64,000 nucleotides of DNA from Bacteroidota bacterium (GTDB lineage: Bacteria; Bacteroidota; Bacteroidia; UKL13-3). Of this stretch, positions 38,791-43,277 are shown one piece after another (position 1 is the stretch's first letter; every line of letters begins with the position of its first letter). Position numbers and translations under genes: made by a program. The stretch covers positions 62,001 through 126,000 of the forward strand of contig JAIYCU010000033.1 in assembly GCA_027487835.1 (NCBI GenBank), read 5' to 3'. The notes below the pieces were generated by a model. That model was given only the letters and a program-made list of their open reading frames with translations, ran no database searches and was not told the origin of the DNA.

Positions 38791-39012
38791 ATGTATTGGA
38801 CATTAGAACTAGCATCTTACTTAGATGATGCTCCATGGCCGGCAACAAAGGATGAATTAATAGATTACGCCATTAGATCTGGTGCACCCTTGGAGGTAAT
38901 TGAAAACCTTCAAGAACTTGAGGATGATGGTGAGCCCTTTGAAACCATTGAAGAAATTTGGCCTGATTATCCTACAAATGAGGATTATTTCTACAATGAG
39001 GACGAACTTTAG
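38791..39012 (+). CDS. DUF2795 family small acidic protein
   Basis: A 73-residue, strongly acidic protein beginning MYWTLELASYLDDAPWPATK and containing DELIDYAIRSGAPLEVIENL and FETIEEIWPDYP. It matches the DUF2795 family of short proteins that are widespread and highly conserved in Bacteroidota. It has no signal peptide and its role is not known. A -7-like TAAATTCG lies 23 bases upstream. It is convergent with the Fic-like gene, separated by three bases. Confidence 0.85.
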   Translation: MYWTLELASYLDDAPWPATKDELIDYAIRSGAPLEVIENLQELEDDGEPFETIEEIWPDYPTNEDYFYNEDEL

Positions 39013-39015
39013 GCT

Positions 39016-40185
39016 TTAATCTTCGTATTCAGAAATTTGATTGCTATCAGCAGATCTTAAGAAATCCGCTTGGAATTTTTCCAGAAGCGGGTTTCTTTTT
39101 TCTTGCAGGTTAATGCAATATCTTAATCCTGCCCCTGCACCTATAGATTTAACCAATCCAAGGTCCATTAATAATTGAAAATCTCTTTGTATAGTTTTTC
39201 TATTGCAGTCAAATTCATTTACAAGTTCTTTTGTTGAAATGAAACCTCTATGCTGCACAATATACATGATGAGTTTTTGTCTTTTGTTTAAGATTGCCTC
39301 ATCAATTTCTTTGAGTTTATATCCTCGTTCAAAAACATAATTCATGATGTTTTTTTGACGAGGGTTTAGTTTTTCAAAATCTACTTGTTTTCTAAAGTAT
39401 GATTTGAATAATTCCTTTAACCTGTCAATTTGTGAAAGGTGCAGTAGAAGGCCAAATTCTAGCTGTGTATTTAAACTATTATTTTCACCATTAATAGAAA
39501 GATTGATGATTTCTTCATAAGTATGCTTTTGCAAGTATAATTCGTGTTCAATACTTAATAATCCGTCTAAATCCATTTGATTTTTTTTGAGCCAAAATTG
39601 CTGTAGTAAGGAGGCAATTTTTCCAGAACCTTCATTAAATAATGGAATAGACCTCAACCTAAAGTGTAAGATCCAGCTTTGCACGATAGGGTGAAACTCG
39701 TTGTCATAATTTAAAAATTCAAATAGACTTTCTAGTTCAAGCTCACTTTCTAAACTAACTTTTTGTGAATGGCTTTGTTCTGGAATAGAAAATAAGTTTG
39801 TTTCTTCAATTTGATTTTGAGTTTCGTTCAAAAGTATTTTATGCACTTCTAAAAGAAGTGGAACACTTAATGGTTGCTGCAATTGTTGTGATAAAAATAG
39901 TTCTGCTAGACTAAATTGTTCGATTGCTTTTTCTGCTAGGTTAGAAGCCCTTAAATTCTTGTTCAGTAAATACTTTACAGTTTTAATATCTATTAAGTTA
40001 TTGTCAAGAGCGTTTGCATAGTAATTTCTTAAAATGGCACTATTCACTCTTTCAATATTTTGAATATTGATGGGCAAATCAATAAAATCATAGATTTTGC
40101 AAAGTTCTGTATATTCCCTTTCACATAATTGAAAGGATTCATCGATGGATAAAAGAGGTTCGTATTTGTTGATTAGAATCATCAC
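39016..40185 (-). CDS. Pseudo-Fic protein with C-terminal winged helix
   Basis: A 389-residue protein. Residues 30-260 keep the helical pattern of Fic (AMP-transferase) domains, including HPIVQSWILHFRLRSI before the active site, but the signature HPFx(D/E)GNGRxxR reads PLFNEGSGKIAS at 181-192: the catalytic His is Pro181, Asn is Ser187, and both Arg are Lys189 and Ser192. The inhibitory-helix motif near residue 49 (SxxIEG) also reads SAILRN. Residues 300-358 form a winged helix of the DeoR/HTH_11 type (GFISTKELVNEFDCNRKTIQRDF). The protein is therefore more likely a DNA-binding regulator than an enzyme. It is preceded by 176 bases of noncoding DNA with a TAGTTTCG element. Confidence 0.78.
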   Translation of the reverse strand: MMILINKYEPLLSIDESFQLCEREYTELCKIYDFIDLPINIQNIERVNSAILRNYYANALDNNLIDIKTVKYLLNKNLRASNLAEKAIEQFSLAELFLSQQLQQPLSVPLLLEVHKILLNETQNQIEETNLFSIPEQSHSQKVSLESELELESLFEFLNYDNEFHPIVQSWILHFRLRSIPLFNEGSGKIASLLQQFWLKKNQMDLDGLLSIEHELYLQKHTYEEIINLSINGENNSLNTQLEFGLLLHLSQIDRLKELFKSYFRKQVDFEKLNPRQKNIMNYVFERGYKLKEIDEAILNKRQKLIMYIVQHRGFISTKELVNEFDCNRKTIQRDFQLLMDLGLVKSIGAGAGLRYCINLQEKRNPLLEKFQADFLRSADSNQISEYED

Positions 40186-40361
40186 TTACGAAACTAAAGT
40201 CTTTTTACATTGGCTTAACATACGTGTTTCCAACGAAGTGCAGTGGATTATTAAAAAAACCCAACTTTGTAAGTAAGTAAATGCTGTTATGCCCTTTGTT
40301 TATTGGGCTTTTGGCAAATTAAGAAAAATAGACAAGTTTAAAACCTTCTGTGAATAAGCCT

Positions 40362-43277
40362 TTAACTTCCACCTAAGGCTTTGTATCTATTGATGCATTC
40401 TTGTGCGGCAGCATTGTTTCCTAATTTTTGAAATACTTGTGCTAATTCGCCCCAAGCTTGCACAAAATTTGGATTCATACCTAATGCGTACTGATAGTTT
40501 TCTGATGCTAAATTTAAGTTATTAGTGGCAGCATAAGCCTTACCTAAATAATAGAATACTTCAGGTATTGAAGTATTGTGTTTTTTAGCCATCTCTAAGC
40601 AACGTATGCCATTGGTATAATCATTTAGGTTTAAGTAGGCGAGTGCAGCGTAATACCAGCTTTCTACAACGTTTTCTTTTAGGTCGGTGCTCATTTTAAA
40701 TGTGGCTGCCGCTTTTTGGAATTCCTTTTTATTAAAATATACCAAACCTAGATTACTATAAGCCGTAAAGTTTTCAGGATATATTTCAATTGCTTTTTTA
40801 AGAGCCATTTCTGCGCTATCGAGTGAAGCGGTATTGATAAGTGAAAATCCAAGCATTCTCCAAGCTTCTTCGTCTTTGGGTGCATATTTTACCGCATCGC
40901 CAAAATACCATATTGCAGAATCAAACTTTGAGTTATCTAAAGCTTTATAGCCACTTGGCATACTCCAATTTTCTCTTTTAACTACTGCCGCAAGCGGAAT
41001 TCCATCTGCTTCAACCGTGTAAACTGTGCCTGCTGGTGGAAAAGAACCATTTAGTAACTCGTTTTTAGAAAAGGTTCTTGTTGTGAGAATTAGATAATCC
41101 CAAGCTAGTTTTTGTTCTTCCATTTCTCTAGTCCAAACAAAATTGAGCCGTGGGTTGATTTGATGTGCCCAATAAGACGCTGTGGTAGTTTCATTATTGA
41201 TACCAATAACTAAGGTGTCTTTTGGATGTTGCTTAGCAATCCACTCGGCAGCTTCCCTGCAAGAGTTCGAATAATAATCTGTTTCATAAGTGCCATAAGC
41301 ACCTTTTAGGCCACCTACAAATTCATTGAAATATACATATTGATTTGGATGATTTTGAACTATCCAGATAGCAGGCTTTGCAAAAAGGGTAAGTAAAACT
41401 AACCCTGCACTTAAGGCAATTGCTTTTTTCTGACTTAGTATATAATCCCAAACTAATGCAGCTAGTCCTACAGCAAATGGCAAAACAAAAAGATAATGTC
41501 TCCAACCATTGTAGTAATTTAAATTGCTATATTCTGCATAAAGGATTGGGAACAACAACATAAATACAAGCATCAAAAGGGTTCCAATTCCAATTTTATT
41601 TTTCAATGGAATAAAAAGAAGAAGACTTGCTAAAACCCCAATTATTAGGTAAATAGGATTACCCATTCCTAAAAATTTGAAGACATAATACCAAGGAGCA
41701 CTTGTTATCATATACATTCTTTTTCCTTCAAATAACTCCACATTATTAGTATAGAATGCATTTTCTGAGGCTTTTTTGAACGCCATTAAAGGATGTTCTA
41801 ATGGGTTATCTAATGCGTAGGGCCAAATTAAAATACCGATGATGTACCCAATGCTACCAACAATTAGAAATAATTTAGCATAGGACCATACATAACTTGT
41901 TGGCTTAGCTCCCTTTTGTTTAAATAGAGAAATCCAATGTATGGCTAGAAATAAACCAAAATAGGCTAAAATTAATAATGCCCCAACCCTTGATGCAATT
42001 CCGATACCTATACCTACTGCTAGCCAAAGTAAATTTCTATATAGTGGATTAGGTAAGTTTCTTACTACTTTAATCATAAAATAACCAGCCATTGCAAAGC
42101 CTGTGGCAAATGGAATGTCTGTTGGATTATTCATACTATTACCCATCCACCCTGGATTAAAAAACATAAATAGCAAGGCTAATAGGGCAGCTCTCCAACC
42201 TGCGATTTCAAAGGCTATGAGCGAGGCAAAAACTAAACCAATTAAACCATATATACTATTTACAAAATGCCTTGTTTCATAAATACCTGTACCCAAAGTA
42301 TTATAAGTAAATGCGGAAATGGTGTTTGATTGCTCCCCATAGTAACGATAGGCTTGCCGTATATACTCTCCACCATTTGCTGGCTCGGCCAGCGCAGCGG
42401 TATCTTCCCCAAAACTAGTTAAATATCTGTAGGCAAGCTGAGAGTAATCATTGTGCGCTTTTTCATCCCATGTACTTCCAAAGTCTTGTGACAGTAAGGG
42501 TAAAGCAAATGAGAAAATTATAAAAAATGCAAAATAAAGTAATCTATAAAGAGGATGAGACCCATTTGAGAGATTTATTTTTTTTGTTTTTATTTGGATG
42601 AATGCATCAGTTACAAAATAGTTCCATCTCAATGTGAAAATTGAAGGAATTAATTGACCCCATTTTAGGCTTGGTTTTAATTCTTGTGATGAAATTGAAA
42701 ATTCTTGTGTTCTTAGTTTGTAGGATGAAATTAGGTTTAATAATTGCAAATAGTTGTTTGATGCTTGTAATTCGTTAGATAACTTTTCTTGCAACCATTC
42801 TGTATTGGCGGCTATAAGTCCTGAATTGCAATCAGATCCTTTAATGGCAGTAAAAATTCTAGTTAAACTGTTGTATAAACTATCAGCTATTGGCACCTTT
42901 ACTTTACTTCCTTTTTGAACAATATTATATGTGCCAATTGAAAGTAAATTTTGATTTAAAATTTTCTTTTGAGATTGAATGTTTTGCGCGAAATTGCCAA
43001 GTGCCCCTTCTGCCTGCCACAAACATACGCTTAAACTTGCAGATGCCTTTTTTAATGCTTTAGAGAAATTCAGTGCTATTGTTTTATTAGATTCCCACGG
43101 ATGAATTATCACTTTTCCATTTGGAGTGGATCTTGGTGAATTGGTTATGCAAATGATTTCTATATCCTGTTTGGTTTTTGAAATAAAAGCCTCAAGGGTT
43201 TCCCACCAACTATTGCTTGCGTTTCTAGCATCAATGCAATAAGTAGTTCTATTATCTGAAAGTTGTTTGTTTTCCAT
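40362..43277 (-). CDS. GT39-like membrane glycosyltransferase fused to TPR repeats
   Basis: A 971-residue protein with three parts. Residues 1-225 are cytosolic and resemble a degenerate GT2 nucleotide-binding domain (CIDARNASNSWWETLEAFI). Residues about 240-640 hold 10-12 membrane helices of the GT-C/GT39 class with the acidic pair in the first loop (FGSTWDEKAHNDYSQLAYRYL) that usually binds the polyprenyl-phosphate sugar. From 780 to the end lie TPR units (GYKALDNSKFDSAIWYFGDA, SEMAL-type repeats, AIEIYPENFTAYSNLGLVY). It follows the methyltransferase by two bases, downstream of a GT2 enzyme. A protein or glycolipid glycosylation role is an inference from the set. Confidence 0.8.
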   Translation of the reverse strand: MENKQLSDNRTTYCIDARNASNSWWETLEAFISKTKQDIEIICITNSPRSTPNGKVIIHPWESNKTIALNFSKALKKASASLSVCLWQAEGALGNFAQNIQSQKKILNQNLLSIGTYNIVQKGSKVKVPIADSLYNSLTRIFTAIKGSDCNSGLIAANTEWLQEKLSNELQASNNYLQLLNLISSYKLRTQEFSISSQELKPSLKWGQLIPSIFTLRWNYFVTDAFIQIKTKKINLSNGSHPLYRLLYFAFFIIFSFALPLLSQDFGSTWDEKAHNDYSQLAYRYLTSFGEDTAALAEPANGGEYIRQAYRYYGEQSNTISAFTYNTLGTGIYETRHFVNSIYGLIGLVFASLIAFEIAGWRAALLALLFMFFNPGWMGNSMNNPTDIPFATGFAMAGYFMIKVVRNLPNPLYRNLLWLAVGIGIGIASRVGALLILAYFGLFLAIHWISLFKQKGAKPTSYVWSYAKLFLIVGSIGYIIGILIWPYALDNPLEHPLMAFKKASENAFYTNNVELFEGKRMYMITSAPWYYVFKFLGMGNPIYLIIGVLASLLLFIPLKNKIGIGTLLMLVFMLLFPILYAEYSNLNYYNGWRHYLFVLPFAVGLAALVWDYILSQKKAIALSAGLVLLTLFAKPAIWIVQNHPNQYVYFNEFVGGLKGAYGTYETDYYSNSCREAAEWIAKQHPKDTLVIGINNETTTASYWAHQINPRLNFVWTREMEEQKLAWDYLILTTRTFSKNELLNGSFPPAGTVYTVEADGIPLAAVVKRENWSMPSGYKALDNSKFDSAIWYFGDAVKYAPKDEEAWRMLGFSLINTASLDSAEMALKKAIEIYPENFTAYSNLGLVYFNKKEFQKAAATFKMSTDLKENVVESWYYAALAYLNLNDYTNGIRCLEMAKKHNTSIPEVFYYLGKAYAATNNLNLASENYQYALGMNPNFVQAWGELAQVFQKLGNNAAAQECINRYKALGGS

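What the first reader, a model, noticed from the sequence alone, without database searches (positions are those of the whole stretch)
39016..40185. Fic-fold protein with a lost active site fused to a winged helix
The AMP-transferase signature is changed at every key position (PLFNEGSGKIAS in place of HPFx(D/E)GNGRxxR) and the inhibitory-helix motif is also altered, yet the fold pattern is kept and a DeoR/HTH_11 type DNA-binding domain is attached. Wild-type Fic-HTH fusions are thought to be self-regulating enzymes; here the Fic part might have become a ligand- or protein-sensing module of a transcription factor. I am not aware of a characterised case of this exact form.
Basis: partly seen in the sequence, partly recalled or inferred. 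Interest (0 to 1): 0.6.

Follow-up and report, generated by a model that had tools for sequence, protein, structure and literature searches.

The report
Dead Fic enzyme turned gene regulator
A protein built like a Fic enzyme (a type that sticks AMP onto other proteins) has lost its catalytic signature across one family of Bacteroidota but kept its DNA-binding end, and its gene has a conserved promoter site that was not found at other genes in the searches made, so it has probably become a transcription factor that regulates itself.

Summary
The ORF (39016-40185, minus strand) joins a borderline Fic domain to a DeoR/HTH_11 helix-turn-helix. Its signature reads PLFNEGSGKIAS: five of nine fixed positions are changed (H, P, N, R, R) and four kept, so "every key position" overstates it. 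The loss is old: orthologues occur in 58 of 64 family genomes, and 0 of 57 aligned has HPFx[D/E]GNGRxxR, against 21 of 21 ordinary Fic proteins fetched. A well-supported branch separates these proteins, and more decayed relatives in three other families, from ordinary Fic. Both domains are under purifying selection; the recognition helix is nearly invariant. New here: an apparently leaderless promoter with ATNCAC 43-46 nt before the -7 box in 47 of 54 upstream regions. A promoter profile ranks this site first in all 19 genomes of the genus and in one further genome, of 37 searched. Four of five relatives in one distant family carry a similar element. A DUF2795 gene lies convergently downstream in 40 of 57 loci. 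Best reading: a catalytically dead Fic-fold transcription factor regulating itself. Main rival: the element is a DnaA box, which divergent members match exactly. Nearest known: CccR, an active Fic-HTH autorepressor. DNA binding, ligand and regulon are untested.

The parts
39016..40185 (-). Pseudo-Fic-HTH protein, 389 aa (GTG at 40185-40183, ATG at 40182-40180)
   Evidence: match in 58 of 64 family genomes
39385..40071 (-). Fic-like domain, residues about 39-267
   Evidence: AF2 model and structural alignment to Fic proteins; Pfam Fic on residues 105-198
39610..39645 (-). Decayed Fic signature PLFNEGSGKIAS, residues 181-192
   Evidence: 0 of 57 orthologues has HPFx[DE]GNGRxxR
40000..40017 (-). 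Decayed inhibitory-helix motif ANALDN, residues 57-62
   Evidence: [ST]xxxE[GN] in 3 of 57; D at the glutamate position in 47 of 57
39106..39288 (-). DeoR/HTH_11-type winged helix, residues about 300-360
   Evidence: Pfam HTH_DeoR and HTH_11 over cut-off; helix-helix-helix-strand-strand in the models, modest confidence
39178..39207 (-). Recognition-helix region CNRKTIQRDF, residues 327-336
   Evidence: N328, R329, K330, T331, Q333, R334, D335, F336 identical in 56 of 56 rows with a letter there
40189..40196 (-). Bacteroidota-type -7 box TAGTTTCG, 6 nt before the ATG (leaderless or nearly leaderless transcript inferred; box consensus recalled)
   Evidence: box starts 12-17 nt before the ATG in the 47 scored regions
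40243..40250 (-). Operator-like element TAATCCAC, ending 46 nt before the -7 box
38791..39012 (+). DUF2795 protein (73 aa), convergent neighbour, conserved by position
   Evidence: PF11387 E 6e-19; convergent within 240 nt in 40 of 57 f1 loci, within 300 nt in 5 of 5 f38 loci, 0 of 6 f58 and f34 loci

Best explanation
The gene encodes a transcription factor descended from a SoFic-type Fic-HTH protein. The Fic fold has lost AMP transfer and its own inhibitory switch (inferred from sequence) and now serves as the body of the regulator, probably for dimerisation and perhaps for sensing a ligand or partner. The C-terminal winged helix binds DNA through the nearly invariant CNRKTIQRDF helix. Its main specific target is its own promoter: an ATCCAC element roughly 60 bp upstream of a leaderless start whose promoter has a -7 box but no conserved -33 element. 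The position of the element suggests autoactivation; CccR shows that autorepression is equally possible. Shown here: loss of the motif in 57 of 57, purifying selection, the conserved element and its spacing, and that no second copy of the promoter was found. Inferred: loss of catalysis, DNA binding, self-binding, sign of control, sensing.
For: 0 of 57 orthologues keeps the Fic signature (His kept in 1, N in 5), while 21 of 21 ordinary Fic proteins fetched from this or related genomes keep it. A branch with 99/96 support separates 26 pseudo-Fic from 19 ordinary Fic rows. Where dS is below 1, dN/dS is about 0.03-0.12 in the Fic-like domain and 0-0.05 in the wHTH; mean pairwise identity is 51% in the Fic part and 76% in the wHTH. 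ATNCAC lies 43-46 nt before the -7 box in 47 of 54 upstream regions (ATCCAC in 45); of the other arrangements of these six letters CACCAT scores 22, because it overlaps the site (ATCCACCAT), and the rest at most 3. The composite occurs once in the 64 kb window and once in 29 of 38 named loci (305 kb), each time at this promoter. The promoter profile ranks this site first in 19 of 19 genomes of the genus and in the one g2 genome searched (E 8e-8 to 2e-11; next listed match 0.003). Four of five f38 relatives carry GTGGATAA before a similar -7 box. Precedent: CccR.
Against: No binding or activity data. Campylobacter fetus Fic2 has a degenerate motif and is still toxic (PMC5651007), so motif loss does not prove loss of function. 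In divergent members the element equals the recalled DnaA-box consensus TTATNCACA. No dyad symmetry was found around the element in 29 non-redundant f1 sequences. Seven of 54 upstream regions lack it at the tested spacing; three of these have a reversed box further out. Relatives L144 and L148 have the recognition helix but no such element was seen. The profile was trained on sequences of these genomes, scored only 137 first-look candidates per genome in most, and did not list the promoters of G021 and G022, which have the gene, so weaker target sites could be missed. The 12-mer TAATCCACCATT is commoner in the genus than its reversed control (53 against 26), of which 12 are this promoter. Genera g14 and g3 lack the gene.
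Confidence: 0.5

Rival explanations
1. The ATCCAC element is a DnaA box: the pseudo-Fic gene is a target of the replication initiator DnaA, and the protein, still a DNA-binding regulator, acts on other genes.
For: In divergent f1 relatives the box reads TTATTCACA (L070, L073, L104), TTATACACA (L071) or TTATGCACA (L072) and in four f38 loci TTATCCACA, an exact fit to the recalled DnaA consensus TTATNCACA. TTATCCACA is rare in the own genome, 8 against 33 for the reversed control.
Against: In 19 of 19 loci of the window's genus the box is TAATCCAC or AAATCCAC, off that consensus. No TTATNCACA occurs in the 9 kb held around dnaA, which neither supports nor excludes DnaA elsewhere.
Confidence: 0.22
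2. The Fic part is still an enzyme with altered chemistry or a non-canonical active site, and the HTH only tunes its expression (a toxin-like protein that regulates itself).
For: F183 is kept in 52, an acidic residue at 185 in 48 and K189 in 49 of 57; the active-site stretch 165-205 is under purifying selection; the degenerate Fic2 of C. fetus is toxic; AvrB binds nucleotide without the motif (PMC2686095).
Against: The catalytic histidine is missing in 56 of 57, N in 52, the first R in 52, the last R in 50, with varied replacements. Eleven distant relatives lack the signature too. No ORF of 60 aa or more lies on the same strand between this gene and the next one upstream.
Confidence: 0.12
3. 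The protein acts mainly with DUF2795: the conserved convergent pair is a functional unit, for example DUF2795 is its partner, or the two are linked through overlapping 3' ends.
For: Convergent within 240 nt in 40 of 57 f1 loci and within 300 nt in 5 of 5 f38 loci, although other neighbours differ.
Against: Found in 0 of 6 f58 and f34 loci and not in several f1 genera (g4, g6, g9, g10, g12) within the DNA held; convergent genes are not co-transcribed; shared descent of the locus could explain it.
Confidence: 0.08
4. A decaying former Fic gene without function.
For: The signature is lost and variable.
Against: Full-length ORFs in most family members, dN/dS far below 1, invariant HTH residues, conserved promoter.
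Confidence: 0.02

Closest known systems
CccR of Yersinia pseudotuberculosis (PMC9755527)
   Same: Fic fold followed by a C-terminal HTH; binds its own promoter through the HTH (shown for CccR, inferred here)
   Different: CccR keeps the catalytic histidine, AMPylates FtsZ and is secreted; its operator is AGATAATCAT-N26-ATGATAATCT near the -35 and -10 boxes. Here signature and inhibitory motif are lost and the element is ATCCAC far upstream of a leaderless start
SoFic (SO_4266; PDB 3eqx, 3zec), Fic with C-terminal wHTH
   Same: Overall fold (Z 23.6-24.3); PADLOC SoFic model matches residues 99-349 at E 1.3e-9
   Different: SoFic has the intact signature and inhibitory motif (recalled); the NCBIfam SoFic model gives 13.2 bits against a cut-off of 550
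DeoR/GlpR-type and HTH_11 winged helices
   Same: HTH domain over the Pfam cut-offs
   Different: No DeoR sensor domain among the Pfam matches; fused to a Fic-like domain
AvrB and the degenerate Fic2 of Campylobacter fetus (PMC2686095, PMC5651007)
   Same: Fic-fold proteins lacking motif residues
   Different: No HTH mentioned for them in the passages read; effector or toxin roles; not a lineage-wide regulator

Membership tests
Fic/Doc adenylyltransferase (PF02661) | Fic fold | tested here: met
   Pfam at cut-off; model Z about 23-25 to Fic structures
Fic/Doc adenylyltransferase (PF02661) | HPFx[D/E]GNGRxxR signature | tested here: not met
   PLFNEGSGKIAS in the window; 0 of 57 orthologues
Fic/Doc adenylyltransferase (PF02661) | AMP (or other NMP) transfer | not testable with these tools
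   needs a biochemical assay
Class II/SoFic-type Fic | N-terminal inhibitory motif [S/T]xxxE[G/N] | tested here: not met
   ANALDN in the window; kept in 3 of 57 orthologues (STALEG, genus g4)
Class II/SoFic-type Fic | C-terminal winged helix | tested here: met
   model secondary structure
NCBIfam protein adenylyltransferase SoFic (NF046030) | score over the curated cut-off of 550 bits | tested here: not met
   13.2 bits
DeoR-family transcriptional regulator | HTH_DeoR domain | tested here: met
   29.6 bits, cut-off 21
DeoR-family transcriptional regulator | C-terminal DeoR sensor domain | tested here: not met
   not among the Pfam matches up to E 1; the rest of the protein is Fic-like
Self-regulating Fic-HTH transcription factor (CccR-like) | conserved specific site in its own promoter | tested here: met
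Self-regulating Fic-HTH transcription factor (CccR-like) | binding of that site by the protein | not testable with these tools
   EMSA or footprinting needed
DnaA-regulated gene | TTATNCACA box in the promoter | tested here: inconclusive
   exact in divergent relatives, off-consensus in 19 of 19 loci of the window's genus

The most novel reading that the evidence does not exclude
A whole lineage of Fic-fold proteins in Bacteroidia has given up AMP transfer and become a family of dedicated transcription factors, the Fic pocket being recycled as a sensor. Their private, leaderless promoter carries a site that is, or evolved from, a DnaA box, which would tie this regulator to chromosome replication.
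Probability: 0.2. Interest if true: 0.75.

Novelty: new variant of a known kind. Interest (0 to 1): 0.52.

Why it matters
Fic-HTH fusions have been seen for years as enzymes that may control their own synthesis. A clade in which selection maintains the fold and the DNA-binding half without the catalytic signature would show how a post-translational modification enzyme can be recycled into a transcription factor. It comes with apparent intermediates: genus g4 keeps NGRxxR and the inhibitory motif but not the histidine. The strict geometry between ATCCAC and the promoter gives an immediate operator to test, including whether the protein itself or DnaA binds it.

Tried and rejected
Recent mutation or annotation artefact: rejected, 57 of 57 orthologues lack the signature. 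Plasmid cargo: no match in the plasmid collection; phage collections were not searched. Regulon by exact 12-mer TAATCCACCATT: 53 hits in 19 genomes of the genus against 26 for the reversed control; by coordinates 12 of the 53 are this promoter. I read 30 of the 53: 8 have a -7 box at the right spacing, 7 of them this promoter and 1 (L209) not; I take L209 as a chance hit inside coding sequence, unproven. The excess over control is not explained. Regulon by profile: no second site stood out, with the limits given above. Dyad symmetry around the element: none convincing in f1. DnaA boxes around dnaA: none in 9 kb, which does not settle the DnaA rival. Photolyase-related, flavin-reductase-like and SDR-like genes upstream in some genera: not beside the gene in the window's genus, so not taken as the target. 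wHTH modelled alone: pLDDT 70, best Z 7.2 (2.7 A, 65 residues), not decisive; a family missing from those lists is not excluded. Literature: searches gave CccR and general Fic or unrelated papers; DUF2795 gave two papers, listing only seen.

Full report
1. The observation. The ORF 39016-40185 (-) encodes 389 residues, GTG at 40185 followed directly by ATG at 40182. Pfam finds HTH_DeoR and HTH_11 over their cut-offs around residues 302-347 and Fic exactly at its cut-off on residues 105-198. It is the only Fic match at E 0.001 in the own genome. PADLOC's SoFic model matches residues 99-349 at E 1.3e-9; NCBIfam's SoFic model gives 13.2 bits against a cut-off of 550. An AlphaFold model from 27 sequences (mean pLDDT 74; most of the Fic part near 90, residues 121-140 about 41, residues 271-360 between 46 and 72) aligns to solved Fic-HTH proteins: 4rgl Z 25.4 (10.1 A, 288 residues), 7xux Z 23.9 (2.9 A, 238), 3eqx Z 23.6 (2.8 A, 242) (Foldseek). 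The C-terminal part modelled alone is a helix-helix-helix-strand-strand unit of modest confidence (pLDDT 70, best Z 7.2).

2. The signature. HPFx[D/E]GNGRxxR reads PLFNEGSGKIAS. H, P, N and both R are changed; F, the acidic residue and both G are kept. The statement that every key position is changed is too strong. The inhibitory motif reads ANALDN.

3. Orthologues. A profile search of the 64 genomes held of the family (the order holds no other) matched 58 at E 1e-10; genera g14 (5 genomes) and g3 (1) had none (protein search). I aligned 57; the 58th, a terminal fragment in G083, was left out. None of 57 has the signature. His is kept in 1, P in 7, F in 52, D/E in 48, the first G in 7, N in 5, the second G in 4, the first R in 5, the last R in 7; position 189 is K in 49. 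The inhibitory motif survives in 3 of 57, all in genus g4, which also keeps NGRVAR but has Gly for His, an apparent stage of decay. By contrast 21 of 21 ordinary Fic proteins that I fetched have the full signature; they are a sample of hits, not all (one fetched hit, L153, is not a Fic protein and was dropped). Of the nearly invariant residues many lie in the C-terminal part: N279, N282, V284, F285, N300, R302, Q303, G314, T318, K319 and NRKTxQRDF.

4. Wider family. A profile of the own family found, in 395 genomes of the class, eleven genomes of three other families with matches of E 1e-26 to 1e-58 (f34: 2, f38: 5, f58: 4), besides many weaker matches in other genomes; 124 of 395 had a match at 1e-6, and seven of the eight weaker hits I read then are ordinary Fic. 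With ten of the eleven added to the profile, 26 of 395 genomes match at 1e-20: 14 of the own family, these eleven (by construction for ten of them) and one further genome at 2e-22 whose match is an ordinary Fic. The distant proteins lack the signature (0 of 11). Of ten divergent proteins scanned with Pfam, four match Fic, all below the cut-off (16.8-22.8 bits), and eight match HTH_DeoR. In a 45-row maximum-likelihood tree (16 of 57 f1, 4 of 5 f38, 4 f58, 2 f34, 19 of 21 ordinary Fic) a branch with 99/96 support separates pseudo-Fic from ordinary Fic; f38 falls inside f1 (f1 plus f38 100/98; its place within, 94/82). The root is a midpoint and some branches are long.

5. Selection. Over 77 pairs at 80-98.5% identity, where dS is below 1, dN/dS in residues 39-267 is about 0.03-0.12 and in 300-360 about 0-0.05; one pair reaches 0.32 in residues 268-299; many dS values are saturated. 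Mean pairwise identity is 51% in residues 39-267 and 76% in 300-360.

6. The promoter. A TAnnTTyG box starts 12-17 nt before the ATG in the scored regions, so the transcript is probably leaderless (the Bacteroidota -7 box is recalled knowledge). No -33 element is conserved; ATCCAC is. Of 56 loci, 2 had too little upstream DNA; 47 of the other 54 have ATNCAC (ATCCAC in 45) 43-46 nt before the box (45 nt in 31). The same test with the other arrangements of these six letters gave 22 for CACCAT, which overlaps the site, and at most 3 for the rest. Of the seven misses, three (L070, L073, L104) have a reversed GTGAAT, about 51 nt before the -7 box where I counted it; L027 has CTCCAC; L026 and L103 have none; in L105 the start was not placed. 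The composite occurs once in the window (40189-40250) and once in 29 of 38 named loci (305 kb), each time at this promoter. A sequence-only profile of 25 promoters chosen for carrying the element was run on 37 genomes: this promoter ranks first in 19 of 19 genomes of the genus and in the one g2 genome (E 8e-8 to 2e-11); the next listed match is 0.003, near the level in other families (from 0.01). Limits: it was trained on these genomes, scored only 137 first-look candidates in most of them, and did not list the promoters of G021 (g4) and G022 (g5), which have the gene.

7. Distant relatives. Four of five f38 loci (L140-L143) have GTGGATAA about 50 nt, by my count, before TAGATTTG; in three it is paired with an inverted ATCCACA, and the start follows the box closely. 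L144 does not show it with the start as placed. One of two f34 loci (L150) has GTGGAT about 50 nt before TACTTTCG; L148 has none. The four f58 loci show none with this geometry by eye (L145 has an ATCCAC further out, inside the divergent gene). Recognition helices: CNRKTIQRDF or close in f38 and f34, changed in three of four f58. So element and helix go together only loosely.

8. Neighbours. DUF2795 lies convergently downstream within 240 nt in 40 of 57 f1 loci (one more at 1.7 kb; two loci hold under 200 nt downstream), within 300 nt in 5 of 5 f38 loci and in 0 of 6 f58 and f34 loci. Upstream neighbours vary by genus; their names, apart from those covered, are my reading of the sequences.

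9. Mechanism. The simplest account is a transcription factor made from a dead Fic-HTH protein, acting on its own promoter. Loss of catalysis, DNA binding, self-binding and the sign of control are inferred. The main rival is DnaA as binder, because divergent members have exact TTATNCACA boxes; against it, 19 of 19 loci of the window's genus depart from that consensus. TTATCCACA is depleted in the own genome (8 against 33 for the reversed control), and none lies in the 9 kb held around dnaA.

10. What is known. CccR (PMC9755527; abstract, passages and part 1 of the section on regulation read) is an active Fic-HTH protein that represses its own gene by binding AGATAATCAT-N26-ATGATAATCT; its regulatory and toxic activities are independent. 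PMC2686095 (passages) noted Fic-HTH fusions and suggested that the HTH may regulate fic. C. fetus Fic2 (PMC5651007, abstract and passages) shows that a degenerate motif can still be toxic. PMC4454073 (passages) noted Fic and Doc clades that may be inactive. Five searches found no paper on a catalytically dead Fic-HTH regulator; the library lacks most subscription journals.

11. Verdict. New variant of a known kind.

Noticed in passing
window 38791-39012; loci: A small acidic DUF2795 gene is a conserved neighbour: convergent, often with only a few bases between the ORF ends, in two distantly related families of genomes.
   Followed up: partly
L071, L072, L105 (genus g4): Orthologues that keep NGRVAR and the inhibitory STALEG motif but have lost the histidine: apparent intermediates in the loss of the active site.
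   Followed up: partly
L056-L062, L066, L069: In several genera the gene follows genes that look (by eye) like an SDR, a flavin-reductase-like protein, a photolyase-related protein and an FAD oxidoreductase, possibly light-related; not all of them in every locus.
   Followed up: no
L145, L146, L147, L149 (family f58): The distant pseudo-Fic gene is divergent from a gene that looks (by eye) like a PaaD/MIP18-type protein in 4 of 4 loci.
   Followed up: no
own genome G000: TTATCCACA is much rarer than its reversed control (8 against 33), as if the DnaA box were avoided.
   Followed up: partly
19 genomes of the window's genus: The 12-mer TAATCCACCATT is twice as common as its reversed control (53 against 26), more than the 12 pseudo-Fic promoters explain; cause unknown, possibly codon usage.
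   Followed up: partly
window 40362-43277: A 971-aa protein joining a weak PMT_2-like membrane region to a C-terminal run of TPR repeats (Pfam).
   Followed up: no
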